64,000 bases of DNA from a bacterium (GTDB lineage: Bacteria > Verrucomicrobiota > Verrucomicrobiia > Limisphaerales > UBA11358). The notes under the pieces are model-generated. The model saw only the letters and a program-made list of their open reading frames with translations. It ran no database searches and was not told the DNA's origin. The stretch is taken from the NCBI GenBank assembly GCA_021780905.1, contig JAJXXW010000018.1, forward strand, positions 82,847 to 146,846, written 5' to 3'. A program made the position numbers and the translations under genes. Each line of letters opens with the position of its first letter. Position 1 is the first letter of the stretch. This document shows positions 25,841 through 52,066 of this stretch, in pieces.

Positions 25841-26140
25841 TCAAAACAACGGCCTCTGCGCCGCGTTGCTTTCGGCCTTGGCCCGTGTAGCAATCAAAGA
25901 TCTGTCCCGACTCGGAGCGCGGGGCGTATTCGATTGGTGGCCGTGCGCAAGCACCTTGCCGATGAATTGCGCGAATTCTTTCGGGCTGATTTCGCCGAGG
26001 CCTTTGAAATGTGTGATTTCCGGTTCGCCGACGCCGAGCGAGATGGCGTCCTTCATCTTGGCGACGATGTCAAAAAAATCGCGGATGCCCGACTTGGGCA
26101 GGCCGGCCATGTGCGTCGCAATGTAGCGAGATTGACCCAT
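25841..26140 (-). pseudogene. chimeric relic: class I aminotransferase N-terminus joined to decayed GyrB/ParE C-terminal segment
   Basis: [35 protein letters not shown] (aminotransferase-like) runs into [22 protein letters not shown], nearly identical to [22 protein letters not shown] in the 30428-32275 gene. Confidence 0.8.
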
Positions 26141-26389: not shown

Positions 26390-26545
26390 TTCTCCCACTC
26401 CTCGCCGTCCTTCGTTCGCGGGAGCGGAAAAATCCTTCGCCCATCGGATGGGAGAAGGTGGCGAAGCCGGATGAGGGATTGAATTTTGGCCGGATGAGGG
26501 TCGTCGGGAGAAACACATTTTAACGAGGAGAGGGCCGGGGTGAGG
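26390..26545. repeat. REP-like palindromic element remnants upstream of the R-M-like gene
   Basis: ctcctcgccgtcc..atgggagaaggtggcgaagccggatgaggg..gaggagagggccggggtgagga; shares gagagggccggggtgag with the 28418-28550 element. Confidence 0.6.
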
Positions 26546-26622
26546 AGTTCGATGAAAACGAATTGGTGTTGACAAACTCCCCGCTTTGCAACCGCCGCCC
26601 GCCGCGTTATTCTGCGCCGCAC

Positions 26623-29600
26623 ATGGCAAACCTTGGCTCCATCCACACCTACCGCTCGGAAGTGGACCACATCATCCGCTTCGGCGGCAGCACCAAGGAA
26701 ACCTCCATCCGCCGCGCCGTCTTCAATCTCATCAACGCCTACGCCCGCCCGCGCGATTTGCTGCTCGTCGAGGAACTCGATTATTTCAATCCCCGCCGCG
26801 ACAAAACCGTCCGGCCCGACGGCACGCTGAAAAACATTCTCCGCATTGACCAGGGCTTTTGGGAAAGCAAAGACACCGCCGACGACCTGACCGAGGAGAT
26901 CAAAAAGAAATTTGATCGTGGCTATCCCGATTCCAACATTCTCTTCGAGGATTCCCAGACCGCCATTCTCTATCAGGACGGCGCGCGGCTGCTCACCGCG
27001 CCGTTTGCCTCGGCCGAGAGCCTCGACGAACTTCTCACCGCCTACGTCTCGTTCGAGAATCAGGACGTTAAGGAATTCCGCAAGGCCGTCGAGCGGTTCA
27101 AGGACGACATTCCCAACATCGTCATCGCCCTGCGCAGCATGATCCTCAAGCAGGGCAAGGCCAACGCCCCGTTCCGCACGCGCCGCCAGACTTTTCTGGA
27201 ACTCTGCCGCAGCGCCATCAATCCCGCCGTCACGCCCGACGACGTGGATGAAATGCTCATCCAGCACATCCTCACCGAGGAAATTTTTCTCTCCATCTTC
27301 AGCGACACCCAGCTCCTCGATGAAAACAACATCGCGCGCGAATTGAAGCAGGTGGAAAACACCTTCTTCACCGGCGCGACCAAGCGCGACACCCTTGGCC
27401 AGATCAAACACTACTACGAATGTATCAAGGCCCACGCCACCAGCATCGTCAGCCCGCGCGAGAAGCAGACCTTCCTCAAGGTCATCTACGAAAATTTTTA
27501 CAAGGCGTATAATCCCAAGGGCGCTGACCGGCTCGGCATCGTTTATACGCCCGGCGAAGTCATTGATTTCATGATCCGCTCCACCGACACGCTGCTCAAC
27601 CGCCATTTCGGGCGCGGGCTGGCGGATCAGGCCGTGGAAATCCTCGACCCCGCCACCGGCACCGGCAGCTATGTGTGCGACCTCATTGAATATCTTCCGC
27701 GCGCAGTCCTCGCCCGGAAATACAAGCACGAGCTGCACGCCAACGAAGTCGCCATCCTGCCTTACTACATTGCCAACCTGAACATCGAGACCGCCTACGC
27801 CGCCAAGATGGGCAGCTACGCGCCGTTTGAAAACATCTGCTTCGTGGACACGCTCGACAACACCGAGGGGCTGCGCGTGGAGAACCAGTGGGAACTCGGC
27901 GCGATGAGCGCGGAAAACACCCGCCGCATCAAGGCGCAGAATCTGCGCAAGATCAGCGTCATCATTGGCAACCCGCCTTACAACGCCAACCAGCAGAACG
28001 AAAACGACAACAACAAGAACCGCACCTACGAACACATAGACCAGCGCATCAAGGCCACCTACATCGCCGCCAGCACCGCGCAGAAAACGAAAGCCTATGA
28101 CATGTATGCCCGCTTCATCCGCTGGGCGAGTGACCGGCTTGGCGATCAAGGCATCGTTGCTTACATCTGCAATCGCTCGTTTATTGACCAGCGCACGTTC
28201 GATGGCTTCCGCAAAACCGTCGCGCAGGAGTTTGACCATATTTACATCATGGATACGAAGAGCGACGTGCGGGCGAACCCCAAAATCTCCGGCACCAAGA
28301 ATAACGTCTTCGGCATTCAGACCGGCGTTGCCATTGTCTTCTTCGTCAAAGACCAAAGCCACCTGCGGTCATTCGATGAGGCGGGCAGCGCGAATGTCCT
28401 GAACCGGCGCACGGCCCTCCCTCACCCCGGCCCTCTCCCGCTGGGAGAGGGGGAACCGTGCGCCGCGCCTGGCGCAGGCGCAGCGACCGCTATATCCGGC
28501 GGCGGCCGAACTGGCTCCCTCTCCCAGCGGGAGAGGGCCGGGGTGAGGGAGAACGCCCCCGAACGTGCCGCCGACGCGCTGACACCGGGAACCCGTCCGT
28601 CGCATCCCTGCCGGATCTACTACGCCTCCATGGCGGATGAGGTTCCACGCGAAGAAAAGCTCGAGATTCTAAGTGCCGCCAAGATTGAGATGTTGGACAT
28701 GGAGCGAATTGAGCCGGATGCCGATGGTAACTGGCTGGATATGGATACCAGTGATTTCAAGAGCTTGCTGCCACTGGTCGGTGAGTTGGAGAAGGCGGTG
28801 TTTGGCCTCGATAGCAACGGCGTCGTCAGCAATCGCGATGAATGGGTTTATGATGTGGATGCCGACGCGCTGGCAAAGAAGGCCAAGTATCTCAGTGACG
28901 AATACAATCGGTTGCTCAAAGCGAAAGATTTATCTTTCCCCGATACCGTCAAGTGGAGCGAGAGTCTTAAATCCAAATTCAAAGCCGATCTAAAGTCGAA
29001 GTTCACGCGTAAGTTAATCATTGCGGCGATGTATCGCCCATTTACCAAGCTGCATTTCTATTCCGAGAAAGTCTTCAACGACCGGCTCACTGAAAACCAT
29101 TACCAGATGTTCGGCCCGGAATTGGACAAGGAGAACATTGTCATCCTTCACACCGCGCCGGATTCGCAGAAGCCTTTTCTCGCCTATGTCGGCAACTGCA
29201 TTCCCGATTTGCATTTTGTCGGAGCCGCCGCCGGAACAACGTGCCTTCCACTCTACCGTTACGATGAAGACGGCCACCGGCAGGACAACCTGACCGACTG
29301 GGGCCTGCGGCAGTTTCAGCAACACTACGGCGATGCCGCCATCACCAAGCGCGACCTATTCCACTACACCTACGCCGTGCTGCATCAACCGGCCTACCGG
29401 ACGAAATACGAGATCAACCTCAAGCGGGAATTCCCCCGGCTGCCCTTTTACGCGGACTTCCGCCAATGGGCCAAGTGGGGCCAGTCGCTCATGGAATTGC
29501 ATTTGAATTATGAGCAAGCCGCGCCCTTCAAATTGAAGCGCCACGACGCGCCCGATGAATCCGGGCGTCCCCTCACCCCGTCCCTCTCCCCTCCGAGGGG

Positions 29601-29967
29601 AGAGGGTGCCCGCAGGGCGGGTGAGGGGTCCGACATGGCTCGTGGACGCGTCACCGCCCCCGACGACAAACCAAAACTAAAACCCAAACTAAAAGCCGTG
29701 AAGGAAACCGGCACCATCGAGATTGACGCCACCACCACGCTCGCCGGCATCCCCGCCGCCGCGTGGGATTACAAGCTCGGTAACCGCAGCGGCCTGGAAT
29801 GGGTGCTGGATCAATGGAAGGAACACAAAATCAGCGACCCCACCGTGGCCGCCAAATTCAACACCTACCATTTCGCCGACCACAAAGAGCCAGTCATCGA
29901 ACTGCTCCAGCGCGTCTGCACCGTGAGCGTAGAGACGATGAAAATCGTCCGGGCTTTTCCAAATTGA
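26623..29967 (+). CDS. single-polypeptide restriction-modification-like protein: N-terminal PD-(D/E)XK-like region, N6-adenine methylase, C-terminal specificity-like domain (type ISP/IIG-like)
   Basis: Likely start MANLGSIHTYRSE (26623); RPDGTLKNILRIDQGFWESKD nuclease-like motif; motif I DPATGTGS; motif IV NPPY (GNPPYNANQQNENDNNKNRTY); C-terminal half resembles type ISP specificity regions. Confidence 0.88.
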   Translation: MANLGSIHTYRSEVDHIIRFGGSTKETSIRRAVFNLINAYARPRDLLLVEELDYFNPRRDKTVRPDGTLKNILRIDQGFWESKDTADDLTEEIKKKFDRGYPDSNILFEDSQTAILYQDGARLLTAPFASAESLDELLTAYVSFENQDVKEFRKAVERFKDDIPNIVIALRSMILKQGKANAPFRTRRQTFLELCRSAINPAVTPDDVDEMLIQHILTEEIFLSIFSDTQLLDENNIARELKQVENTFFTGATKRDTLGQIKHYYECIKAHATSIVSPREKQTFLKVIYENFYKAYNPKGADRLGIVYTPGEVIDFMIRSTDTLLNRHFGRGLADQAVEILDPATGTGSYVCDLIEYLPRAVLARKYKHELHANEVAILPYYIANLNIETAYAAKMGSYAPFENICFVDTLDNTEGLRVENQWELGAMSAENTRRIKAQNLRKISVIIGNPPYNANQQNENDNNKNRTYEHIDQRIKATYIAASTAQKTKAYDMYARFIRWASDRLGDQGIVAYICNRSFIDQRTFDGFRKTVAQEFDHIYIMDTKSDVRANPKISGTKNNVFGIQTGVAIVFFVKDQSHLRSFDEAGSANVLNRRTALPHPGPLPLGEGEPCAAPGAGAATAISGGGRTGSLSQRERAGVRENAPERAADALTPGTRPSHPCRIYYASMADEVPREEKLEILSAAKIEMLDMERIEPDADGNWLDMDTSDFKSLLPLVGELEKAVFGLDSNGVVSNRDEWVYDVDADALAKKAKYLSDEYNRLLKAKDLSFPDTVKWSESLKSKFKADLKSKFTRKLIIAAMYRPFTKLHFYSEKVFNDRLTENHYQMFGPELDKENIVILHTAPDSQKPFLAYVGNCIPDLHFVGAAAGTTCLPLYRYDEDGHRQDNLTDWGLRQFQQHYGDAAITKRDLFHYTYAVLHQPAYRTKYEINLKREFPRLPFYADFRQWAKWGQSLMELHLNYEQAAPFKLKRHDAPDESGRPLTPSLSPPRGEGARRAGEGSDMARGRVTAPDDKPKLKPKLKAVKETGTIEIDATTTLAGIPAAAWDYKLGNRSGLEWVLDQWKEHKISDPTVAAKFNTYHFADHKEPVIELLQRVCTVSVETMKIVRAFPN
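28418..28550. repeat. large palindromic element inside the R-M-like CDS
   Basis: 34-bp arm tccctcaccccggccctctcccgctgggagaggg (28418-28451) and its perfect reverse complement (28517-28550); each arm is itself palindromic. Confidence 0.95.
29567..29631. repeat. second palindromic element inside the R-M-like CDS
   Basis: gtcccctcaccccgtccctctcccctccgaggggagagggtgcccgcagggcgggtgaggggtc: nested stems. Confidence 0.85.
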
Positions 29968-30077
29968 ACTCCTCACCCCGGCCCTCTCCTCGGTCGGCGA
30001 ACCGGCTGGACCGGCTTGCTCACCAAAGATTGCCATTTTCGGGGTGAAAATTGGCAAAATCAGGTTTTTTTGGCGGA

Positions 30078-30413
30078 TTTGGCGACTTTCAGCGGTCATC
30101 AACCAAGTTGCAGCACCAATAAACCAACTTGCGATGGTCAAAAGGCGACAGCACGAAGGCATTTGGCGACTGGCAGATGCCATCCGGCGACCGCACATGG
30201 TCATAAGTCAACAGCACGAGGCGATAATCCAACTGGAAGATGGCGTTTGGCAACCGACAGATGGCATTTTCCAACTGGCAGCGGTCATTTGGCGACCGGC
30301 AGCAGTCATTTTTCAACCGGCAGATGCGATCCGGCGACTGACAGACGCGATCTTTTGACCGGCAGATTGCATCCGTCCACCGGCAGTTTCAATCCAACGA
30401 ACGGCAAAAGGAG
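30078..30413. repeat. degenerate tandem array, 16 units of exactly 21 bp
   Basis: Manual phasing: tttggcgactttcagcggtca / tcaaccaagttgcagcaccaa / taaaccaacttgcgatggtca / ... / tttggcaaccgacagatggca / ttttccaactggcagcggtca / tttggcgaccggcagcagtca / tttttcaaccggcagatgcga / tccggcgactgacagacgcga ...; no indels. Confidence 0.93.
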
Positions 30414-30427
30414 TCTTGAGGAAACTT

Positions 30428-32275
30428 TTATTCTTCGACCGGCACCACGAGGCTGTCCATGATGTAATCCTTCCGCTCCGGCGTGTTCTTGCCCATGTAG
30501 AAATTGAAGATCGGCCCGGATTCGGCACGCGGGGCGTATTCCACTTTGCTCAAGCGCATTTCCTTGCCGATGAATTGTGCGAATTCTTTCGGGCTGATTT
30601 CACCGAGACCTTTGAAGCGCGTGATCTCCGGTTTGCCGCCCAGTTTCGTGGCCGCCGTGTCGCGTTCGGCTTCGCTGTAGCAGTAAATCGTCTCCTGCTT
30701 GTTGCGGACGCGGAACAGCGGCGTTTCCAAAACGTAAACGTGGCCGTCGTGGACGAGCTGTTCGAAGAACTTGAAGAAATACGTGATCATCAAATTGCGG
30801 ATGTGCATGCCGTCCACGTCCGCGTCGGTGGCGAGAATGACCTTCTCGTAGCGCAGGCCCTCGGTGTTGTCCTCCACGTTGAGCGCCTGCATGAGGTTAT
30901 ACATCTCGTCGTTTTTATACATCACGTCGCGCTTGAGATCCCAGACGTTGAGCGGCTTGCCCTTGAGCACGAACACGGCCTGATTGTTCACGTCGCGGCA
31001 GCTCGTGATCGAGCCGGCGGCGGACTGGCCTTCGCAGATGAAGACCATCGTGCCTTTGCCTTTTTCCTTCTTCTTGTCGAAATGATTTTTGCAGTCCTTC
31101 AATTGTGGAATGCGCAGCGTGATGGCCTTCGCCCGCTCGCGCGCGAGCTTCTTCACGTTCTGCAATTCTTTCCGCAATTCCTGTGTGTCCTTGACCTTCG
31201 CCATGATGGTCTCGGCGATCTGCTTGTTGCGCTGGAAAAAGTGCAGCAGCTCCTCGCGCACGTTGTTGACGAGTTCGGTGCGGATTTCCGTGTTGCCGAG
31301 CTTGTTTTTCGTCTGCGACTCGAACACCGGGTCTTTCAGACGGATCGCCACCGCGCCGACCATGCACTCGCGCACGTCGTCGCCTTCGTATTTGGTGTTG
31401 CCATATTCGTTGACCGCCTTGAGCAAACCTTCGCGGAACGCGCTCAAATGCGTGCCGCCGTCGCTGGTGTATTGGCCGTTGACGAACGAATAAAACGTCT
31501 CGCCGTAGCGCGAATTGCTGTGCGTGAAACAAAACTCCAGCGTCTTGCCCGCGTAATGCAGCGGCGAATAAATTGGTTCGCTGCCGTCGCTCGCCAAATC
31601 TTCCATCACCAGGTCCATTAGGCCGTGGCGCGACTGGAAAACCTTCGGCTCCGGCAGCTCCGGCGTTTTCAAAATCAGCTTCAGACCGGTGTTGAGATAG
31701 CTGTAATGCCGCAGCCGGCGCTCGATGTGTTCCAGCCGGAAAGCGCTTTCCTTGAAAATGCTTTCATCCGGTTCAAACTCAATGAGCGTGCCATTCGGCT
31801 CTTTCGTCTTGCCGGAATCCTCCTTCTTCAGCTTGCCAATCTTAAAACTCGCCTCGGCGAATTCGCCATCGCGATGGCTGCGGACAAAAAAGTTTTTCGA
31901 CAGGGCGTTGACGGCTTTCGTGCCGACGCCGTTGAGGCCGACACTAAATTGAAACACCTCGTCGTTGTATTTCGCGCCGGTATTAATTTTTGAAACGCAG
32001 TCCACCACCTTGCCGAGCGGAATGCCGCGCCCGTAATCGCGCACGGACACATTGTTGCCATCAATCGTGATGGCGACCTCCTTGCCGTGGCCCATGATGT
32101 ATTCGTCAATCGCGTTGTCCACGACCTCCTTGAGCAGCACGTAGCAGCCGTCGTCCGGATGCGCGCCCGTGCCGATGCGCCCGATATACATGCCCGTGCG
32201 CAGCCGGATGTGCTCCAGCGAGGACAGCGTCTTGATCTTGCTCTCGTCGTAAATCGGCGTCGGTTTTTCAGCCAT
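30428..32275 (-). CDS. type IIA DNA topoisomerase subunit B (GyrB/ParE family)
   Basis: LEHIRLRTGMYIGR; DNAIDE; GRGIP; GLNGVGTKAVNALS; EGQSAAGS; TDADVDGMHIRNLM. Met at 32275 (MAEKPTPIYDESK). Confidence 0.96.
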   Translation of the reverse strand: MAEKPTPIYDESKIKTLSSLEHIRLRTGMYIGRIGTGAHPDDGCYVLLKEVVDNAIDEYIMGHGKEVAITIDGNNVSVRDYGRGIPLGKVVDCVSKINTGAKYNDEVFQFSVGLNGVGTKAVNALSKNFFVRSHRDGEFAEASFKIGKLKKEDSGKTKEPNGTLIEFEPDESIFKESAFRLEHIERRLRHYSYLNTGLKLILKTPELPEPKVFQSRHGLMDLVMEDLASDGSEPIYSPLHYAGKTLEFCFTHSNSRYGETFYSFVNGQYTSDGGTHLSAFREGLLKAVNEYGNTKYEGDDVRECMVGAVAIRLKDPVFESQTKNKLGNTEIRTELVNNVREELLHFFQRNKQIAETIMAKVKDTQELRKELQNVKKLARERAKAITLRIPQLKDCKNHFDKKKEKGKGTMVFICEGQSAAGSITSCRDVNNQAVFVLKGKPLNVWDLKRDVMYKNDEMYNLMQALNVEDNTEGLRYEKVILATDADVDGMHIRNLMITYFFKFFEQLVHDGHVYVLETPLFRVRNKQETIYCYSEAERDTAATKLGGKPEITRFKGLGEISPKEFAQFIGKEMRLSKVEYAPRAESGPIFNFYMGKNTPERKDYIMDSLVVPVEE

Positions 32276-51161: not shown

Positions 51162-51201
51162 GGCAAAAGTGCCATTTTTCAAGGGTTTTTACACAAATCC
51201 A

Positions 51202-51535
51202 TGACGAATGAAGATCAATTCATCATGGTCGAATGTTCTTTCGTCATAAATGGACGCTCTTTCGTCAAGGTTGAATGTTCTCCCAGCGTGGAGACGGCTG
51301 GTTTGTCTTGGGAGAATGTTAATCCGTCTTGGCTGAATATCCTTTTAAGGCGAAAACCGCTGCTTTGTCACGGATGGATGTTCTCCCCTGTCGGTTGGAT
51401 GTCCGACTATGGCAAATCAATGTTTGTTTATGAAGGCTGGATGTTCTTTCATGGTGAACGGTTATTCATTTTTTGCGGTTAAATGCCCTGCCGCCATGGA
51501 CGGTTATGCTTTCGCCATAGATTAGTATATATGCT
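51202..51535. repeat. degenerate tandem array, ~16 units of 21 bp
   Basis: Units tcatggtcgaatgttctttcg / tcataaatggacgctctttcg / tcaaggttgaatgttctccca / ... / tcacggatggatgttctcccc / tgaaggctggatgttctttca / ccatggacggttatgctttcg; two units are 20 bp. Confidence 0.9.
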
Positions 51536-51652: not shown

Positions 51653-52066
51653 ATGGCCAGAAAAACGGTTCGCGTAGATATACCCACCAGCAGCCCGGAT
51701 ACGCTCATGGCTTTGAGCCTGTCCATCCTGAAAAAACACGCGGCGGATGGCAATGCCAGCCCGCTGGACAATGACAAGATGACCAAGCTGCAAGCGGCGC
51801 TGAATATTGCCGTGCCGCAAAATCAAGCGGCCTTGGACGCGGATGCCGTGGCGCAAAAGGCGCGGCAGACGCGCGATCAGGCGCTCGGCACGGCGGACGG
51901 CCAGACGGTTTACACCAAAGACACAGCCATGAACATCGTCACTTATACCCGCGATTTGTTGCTGGTGGAAAATGAAGGCACGGAGGAGGCGCTCACGGCC
52001 TACGGCTTCAACGTCGTGGTCGGCTCGGCCAAAAATCCCACGCCCGCGCCCGCCAAGCCGAAATAA
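51653..52066 (+). CDS. hypothetical protein, 137 aa
   Basis: MARKTVRVDIPTSSPDTLMALSLSILKKHAADG..; followed by a strong terminator. Confidence 0.75.
   Translation: MARKTVRVDIPTSSPDTLMALSLSILKKHAADGNASPLDNDKMTKLQAALNIAVPQNQAALDADAVAQKARQTRDQALGTADGQTVYTKDTAMNIVTYTRDLLLVENEGTEEALTAYGFNVVVGSAKNPTPAPAKPK

What the first reader, a model, noticed from the sequence alone, without database searches (positions are those of the whole stretch)
30078..30413. Array A: 16 degenerate units of exactly 21 bp, no indels
Phasing by hand gives 16 consecutive 21-bp units with a consensus near T-Y-Y-GGC-RAC-YGGCAGATGSYA. Sequence is degenerate but the period is strictly kept. It lies between the R-M-like gene and the GyrB/ParE gene. 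21 bp equals two B-DNA turns (same-face phasing) and seven codons. Neither an ordinary gene nor a CRISPR explains it. What it does is unknown; helical-phase protein binding or a heptad-repeat peptide are hypotheses.
Basis: partly seen in the sequence, partly recalled or inferred. Interest (0 to 1): 0.82.

Follow-up and report, generated by a model that had tools for sequence, protein, structure and literature searches.

The report
Period-locked 21-bp array beside orphan genes
The repeat is a real, non-coding row of sixteen 21-letter DNA units, and the same kind of row, always exactly 21 letters but with different wording, sits next to several families of unexplained small genes in two bacterial phyla, which points to an undescribed DNA-protein module.

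Summary
Window 30082-30417 is 16 consecutive 21-bp units without an indel (lag-21 identity 0.58 against 0.25 +/- 0.025 shuffled), preceded by a conserved ~63-bp AT-rich leader. It is not a lone curiosity. Homologous arrays occur elsewhere in this genome and in relatives, mostly next to a ~235-aa all-helical protein family without any known domain ("K"). The window copy is an orphan: in a sister genome the same array, at the same place after parE, still has its K gene, while about 27 relatives have neither. Among K genes, and two unrelated orphan families (M, which owns the window's second array at 51.2-51.5 kb, and F), 84 of 99 copies in Verrucomicrobia and Bacteroidota have a 21-bp-period array within 1 kb upstream; in Bacteroidota three more have it just downstream. 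Units differ between genes, yet the period is always 21. Units are family-specific, oriented relative to the gene, and palindromic in M and F. Coding (dN/dS about 1 in all frames), RNA structure and CRISPR are not supported. Best explanation: a DNA-level platform of sites two helical turns apart, docking a protein and working with the adjacent gene. The docked protein and the function are unknown; neutral repeat turnover is not excluded.

The parts
30001..30018 (+). Remnant of the sequence that in the sister genome G013 and at G000:C90 lies between the leader and the start of the divergent K gene (AACCSGCTGGACSGGCTT...). Homology to the K-bearing copies ends here; the R-M gene follows on the left.
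   Evidence: Sequence compared with L034 and L002
30019..30081 (+). Conserved AT-rich leader (63 bp = 3 x 21, in register with the array), shared with copies L002, L003 and L034
   Evidence: 16-19 of 21 identical per block between L002 and L034
30082..30417 (+). Array A: 16 degenerate 21-bp units, consensus GCRACYGGCAGATGSYATYYG, no indels, non-coding
30428..32275 (-). Neighbour: GyrB/ParE-type topoisomerase subunit. In most relatives its stop is followed by the next gene (MSAKKKK..., presumably parC), with no array.
26563..29967 (+). Neighbour: type IIG restriction enzyme-methyltransferase gene, standing where the K gene lies in G013
51191..51511 (+). Array B: second 21-bp-period array (about 15 degenerate units with 1-2-bp slips), upstream of the M gene
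51653..52066 (+). M gene: 137-aa orphan-family protein MARKTVRVDIPTSSPD... with a Pro/Ala/Lys-rich tail; 11 of 11 intact relatives in the genus have a 21-bp array upstream

Best explanation
Array A is the non-coding half of a two-part, mobile gene module: an array of 21-bp units beside a small orphan gene (here family K, lost from this copy). SHOWN: the exact 21-bp period; recurrence next to three unrelated orphan families in two phyla with different unit sequences; family-specific, oriented units; no coding signature; gain at the parE locus in two of about 29 genomes examined. INFERRED: the array acts as DNA. Units repeat every two turns of B-DNA (21 = 2 x 10.5, the smallest whole number of base pairs that keeps the same helical face), so a row of copies of a sequence-specific, often dimeric, protein can line up cooperatively on one face. 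The array then controls, or forms a nucleoprotein structure with, the adjacent gene or its product. Unit sequence can drift together with its reader; the spacing cannot. The identity of the bound protein (the K/M/F product itself or a separate regulator) is not known.
For: Adjacency: a 21-bp array lies upstream of 18 of 20 K genes in the genus, 15 of 20 in the class, 11 of 11 intact M, 21 of 23 F, and 19 of 25 K in five Bacteroidota genomes and one Phragmitibacter genome, three of the other six having it directly downstream. Flanking 900-bp control windows almost never do: downstream flanks of the genus and class loci stay below 0.48 and 27 parE-downstream windows at or below 0.40. Period: 729 unit-to-unit steps of exactly 21 bp in 75 arrays, with small slips in a minority; young arrays (fold score 0.89-0.96) and degenerate ones share it. 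Sequence-specific reading: units of K genes resemble each other far above between-family chance and mainly in the same orientation (24% against 4.8%; K genus against the named-genome set 15.6% against 1.4%), although that set includes one MAG labelled Anaerolineae with a Verrucomicrobia-like K protein; the larger Bacteroidota set gives 3.8% against 0.8%. Dyad-symmetric units in M and F (Fisher 3e-14 and 2e-16), without within-unit covariation where tested (M), look like dimer operators. RNA folding is not shared: nil in K, equal on both strands in M and F. No frame is under coding constraint.
Against: No binding, expression or phenotype data. Dyad symmetry is absent from the class-level and Bacteroidota K arrays tested, so a dimer is not general. 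Predicted curvature is no more than repetition itself gives, so curvature is not selected. Orphan arrays exist (A itself, C79, C186 of G013, C18 of G023), so the gene is not needed for an array to persist. Three arrays lie downstream of their gene, which does not fit a plain promoter element. Some upstream arrays are 0.5-0.97 kb away and could belong to another gene. Mild stop depletion in one frame is unexplained.
Confidence: 0.48

Rival explanations
1. Neutral minisatellite turnover: these genomes make 21-bp (3 x 7) tandem duplications by slippage near rapidly moving orphan genes; the arrays do nothing and decay by point mutation.
For: 7-bp heptamer microsatellites are common in the order and the genus K and X arrays keep a weak 7-bp sub-period. 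Near-identical and decayed arrays form a continuum. Orphan arrays persist without a gene.
Against: Period 21 alone, in two phyla, with very few small indels against many substitutions; association with three unrelated gene families and fixed orientation; unit similarity kept between Bacteroidota and Verrucomicrobia K genes at about 30% protein identity; class-level K arrays lack the 7-bp sub-period.
Confidence: 0.17
2. The array is the recombination or insertion part of a mobile cassette: unit rows serve as the site at which the K/M/F cassette is inserted, excised or exchanged.
For: The element is present after parE in only two of about 29 genomes; K copies lie at unrelated places; the gene is lost or decayed while the array stays (window A; C90).
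Against: Every gene copy has its own unit sequence, so arrays share no common recombination site; no transposase or integrase is regularly adjacent (only one IS-like case, L072); element ends and target duplications were not found.
Confidence: 0.13
3. The array works as RNA: a repeat-bearing 5' leader or divergent non-coding RNA with 21-nt units bound by the adjacent protein.
For: Arrays usually end 33-200 bp before the start codon; M and F units fold better than shuffles; orientation relative to the gene is conserved in K.
Against: K, class K and Bacteroidota arrays show no excess folding; folding in M and F is equal on both strands and M shows no covariation; no Rfam match in the window; some arrays are downstream.
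Confidence: 0.12
4. A divergent gene encodes a heptad-repeat (coiled-coil) peptide, 21 bp = 7 codons.
For: One frame reads WRPADAI/FQLADAI-like heptads, open over many units; another frame has fewer stops than column-shuffled arrays (4 against 10.4, P 0.009).
Against: pN/pS between homologous arrays is 0.5-1.7 with no frame consistently low; no start codon after the leader stop in the L002 copy (read by hand); frames closed by stops at inconsistent places; units of other families give unrelated peptides.
Confidence: 0.04

Closest known systems
Iterons and centromere-like direct-repeat arrays of plasmids (general knowledge, not searched here)
   Same: Tandem non-coding repeats of about two helical turns beside a gene whose product may bind them
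   Different: Those have near-identical units and a Rep or Par protein; here units are degenerate and differ between copies, copies are chromosomal and multiple, and the neighbour has no known domain
Heptamer direct repeats: TAACTGA repeats of Beggiatoaceae, Cyanobacteria and some Bacteroidetes (PMC4679880); cyanobacterial STRR repeats (general knowledge)
   Same: Intergenic tandem repeats, often upstream of genes, also in Bacteroidetes; array A has a faint 7-bp sub-period
   Different: Those are 7-bp repeats of one fixed sequence near start codons of unrelated ORFs; here the period is 21 bp, units are degenerate and gene-family-specific, with three orphan families
Multi-site promoter operators (arrays of dimeric transcription-factor sites)
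   Same: Same-face spacing, dyad-symmetric units in M and F, upstream position
   Different: Up to 19 sites; a different operator for nearly every gene copy; a few arrays downstream; no regulator gene identified
CRISPR arrays
   Same: Row of conserved plus variable positions beside a gene
   Different: No separate repeat and spacer, no cas gene at the loci examined, 21-bp unit without constant repeats

Membership tests
CRISPR array | Near-identical direct repeats separated by unique spacers | tested here: not met
   Units diverge over nearly all columns without a repeat/spacer split
CRISPR array | cas genes nearby | tested here: not met
   Neighbours are a type IIG R-M gene, parE and orphan genes
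Repeat-protein (heptad) gene | Reading frame under purifying selection | tested here: not met
   pN/pS about 0.5-1.7 in all six frames over six pairs of homologous arrays
Repeat-protein (heptad) gene | Fewer stops than expected from unit columns | tested here: inconclusive
   Frame 1: 4 against 10.4 (P 0.009); frame 2: 14 against 17.5 (P 0.16)
Known structured RNA | Match to an Rfam family | tested here: not met
   No match in the window at gathering thresholds
RNA hairpin array | Compensatory changes within units, strand-specific stability | tested here: not met
   Paired cells equal expectation; K arrays z about 0, M and F equal on both strands
Tandem dimeric operator array | Dyad-symmetric unit | tested here: inconclusive
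   Strong in M and F, weak in genus K, absent in class and Bacteroidota K arrays
Tandem dimeric operator array | Bound by a specific protein that regulates the gene | not testable with these tools
   Needs binding and expression experiments
Iteron or centromere array | Adjacent Rep/Par protein or replicon | tested here: not met
   K has no Pfam, NCBIfam, PHROG or PDB relative and no plasmid or phage match
Heptamer (STRR/TAACTGA-type) repeats | 7-bp period dominant | tested here: not met
   Lag 7 is 0.36 against lag 21 at 0.58 in A; class K arrays have no 7-bp signal
Intrinsically curved upstream DNA | Curvature beyond that given by repetition | tested here: not met
   0.167 against 0.152 with unit columns permuted, mean z 0.16 +/- 0.16; wedge parameters recalled from memory

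The most novel reading that the evidence does not exclude
A previously unrecognised two-part nucleoprotein module shared by Verrucomicrobiota and Bacteroidota: a small helical orphan protein that binds its own private array of 21-bp sites, each locus having evolved its own specificity while the two-turn spacing is fixed, so that many orthogonal protein-array pairs coexist in one genome (a DNA-scaffolded assembly, a self-regulating or a selfish module).
Probability: 0.22. Interest if true: 0.92.

Novelty: categorically new. Interest (0 to 1): 0.8.

Why it matters
A spacing rule kept while the sequence changes is unusual and says that geometry is what matters. It ties together multi-copy orphan gene families that no Pfam or NCBIfam model covers, in two large environmental phyla, and gives them a first handle: nearly every gene comes with a candidate binding array. 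The idea can be tested directly in cultivated Bacteroidota (a Chryseobacterium isolate carries one). No description was found in the open-access papers searched, but subscription papers and preprints were not searchable.

Tried and rejected
CRISPR-like array: rejected from unit anatomy and neighbours. Heptad-peptide gene: pN/pS in six frames, stop counts. Hairpin RNA array: covariation and folding. Curved DNA as the selected trait. Phage or plasmid origin: no K or M relatives in viral contigs, no K relatives in plasmids or phages. Fold of K: confident all-helical model (pLDDT 88), no PDB or viral match below E 0.1; the M model is too poor to use. First profile search R1: many hits beyond the genus were 7-bp microsatellites or coding repeats, discarded by eye. 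Orientation of the downstream arrays: inconclusive. Insertion ends at parE: the other end could not be placed because the G013 contig ends inside K.

Full report
WHAT IS THERE. Window 30082-30417 holds 16 successive 21-bp units with no indel. Self-identity at lag 21 is 0.58 against 0.25 +/- 0.025 in permutations. The unit consensus is GCRACYGGCAGATGSYATYYG, with columns 2-5, 7, 9-12, 14 and 17-18 best kept. A 63-bp AT-rich leader (30019-30081) precedes it in register. The array lies between a type IIG restriction-modification gene and the end of a GyrB/ParE gene on the other strand. No other period from 16 to 45 reaches the same threshold in 862 kb of this genome.

A DISPERSED ELEMENT. In the same genome, similar arrays lie at C90 (same leader), C70 (same leader) and C79. 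Same-genus genomes carry more. Several are collinear: in the best pairs unit i of one array matches unit i of another better than other units, with whole-unit gains or losses, and 108 units in nine arrays contain no indel. So in these the array is inherited as an ordered piece, not a freshly homogenised row.

THE MISSING PARTNER. Six loci carry, next to the leader or array, a ~235-aa gene, MNTKQQNKLAMYLAVKSVLD... ("K"). In sister genome G013 the array after parE is orthologous to the window array, and the K gene lies next to it; in the window the R-M gene stands there. At C90 the K gene is a broken remnant beside a full array. Among parE ends of relatives, only G000 and G013 have an array; in many others the next gene follows within tens of bases. 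The simplest reading is that the element was gained at this place and the window copy later lost its gene. The genus is Verrucomicrobia subdivision 3, judging from the named records of the same contigs.

A GENERAL RULE. I scored upstream and downstream flanks with a period-folding score (mean pairwise identity of six successive rows; flank controls mostly 0.3-0.4). An upstream 21-bp array (score at least 0.50) is present for 18 of 20 evaluable K genes of the genus and 15 of 20 K genes drawn from the class. It is present for 11 of 11 intact members of a second orphan family, M (MARKTVRVDIPTSSPD...), which owns the window's second array at 51.2-51.5 kb, and for 21 of 23 members of a third, F (MAKSYYLPSDD...). 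In five Bacteroidota genomes plus one Phragmitibacter genome, 19 of 25 K genes have it upstream and three of the remaining six have it directly downstream, whereas none of the 19 does. Downstream flanks in the genus and class sets stay below 0.50. Some upstream arrays lie 0.5-0.97 kb away and may belong to another gene. The best scores (0.89-0.96) belong to rows of nearly identical units, so young and old arrays share the period. Exact 21-bp steps number 729 in 75 arrays; a minority show slips of 1-2 bp beyond the in-phase block. Because arrays were delimited by phase, this count is biased against indels.

WHAT UNITS LOOK LIKE. Units differ from gene to gene. Comparing unit profiles, K arrays resemble other K arrays above the 99th percentile of between-family pairs in 24% of pairs in the same orientation relative to the gene and 4.8% in the opposite one. 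K genus arrays against the named-genome set give 15.6% against 1.4%; that set includes one MAG labelled Anaerolineae whose K protein is Verrucomicrobia-like, so the larger Bacteroidota set, 3.8% against 0.8%, is the safer figure. Shared ancestry contributes, but matches such as Carboxylicivirga L197 to the C70 and C90 arrays occur at about 30% protein identity. M and F units are dyad-symmetric (for example CCGGAAGCTTCCGG and TTCCGCG.CCGCGGAA), class and Bacteroidota K units are not.

WHAT IT IS NOT. Coding: between homologous arrays no frame shows reduced pN/pS; mild stop depletion in one frame is noted. RNA: no Rfam match, no within-unit covariation, no excess folding in K arrays, and equal folding of both strands in M and F. 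Curvature: arrays are predicted to be more curved than shuffled DNA, but no more than the same repeats with unit columns permuted. Phage or plasmid: no K relative found.

MECHANISM. The shared property is spacing, not sequence. 21 bp is the smallest whole number of base pairs that returns to the same face of B-DNA (2 x 10.5). The simplest reading is a DNA platform on which copies of a protein sit every two turns, with a sequence-specific reader that differs between gene families. Downstream arrays speak against a pure promoter role. K is predicted to be an all-helical protein (pLDDT 88) without a structural relative.

CAVEATS. Most genomes are metagenome bins; the window's own assembly is rated 6.65% contaminated. 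Only part of the genome was scanned for arrays. The literature search covered open-access papers only.

Noticed in passing
window 25881-26030 and 30491-30638: A 150-bp direct, 80%-identical copy of the 3' part of parE lies beyond the R-M gene, fused in frame behind an aminotransferase-like start (ORF 25841-26140, minus strand); a trace of recombination or of assembly error.
   Followed up: partly
window 26524-26553 and 29963-29992: 30-bp inverted pair (CCTCACCCCGGCCCTCTCC type) flanks the type IIG R-M gene; REP-like sequence of the same type also sits inside its reading frame near 28.4 and 29.6 kb.
   Followed up: no
window 51191-51511: Second, more decayed 21-bp array upstream of the orphan M gene; the orthologous array in G029 (L142) is better preserved (fold score 0.57 against 0.52).
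   Followed up: yes
L210:17772-17900 (G000:C79): Weak 21-bp array (0.47) just downstream of a fourth orphan gene (MSRMNFTGADYERKRGG..., 138 aa, PPAPAAAAKL tail); possibly a fourth family with the same habit.
   Followed up: no
L072:7290-7572 (G028:C87, contig end): 21-bp array (GCAACTGACGYTTGAGTTRT) with a similar AT-rich leader immediately upstream of what looks like an IS3-type transposase start.
   Followed up: no
L047, L048, L049, L051, L052, L064, L071 and others: Many order members carry long 7-bp tandem microsatellites (TTTTGCC, CAGTTGG, CAGATGC and others) in intergenic DNA.
   Followed up: no
L204:3270-3540 (Chryseobacterium sp. Leaf180), L329, L331: 21-bp arrays lie directly downstream of the K gene, in K genes that have none upstream.
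   Followed up: partly
L196, L200: Two Bacteroidota K proteins are longer (about 400 aa) and carry a C-terminal carboxypeptidase-regulatory-like domain.
   Followed up: partly
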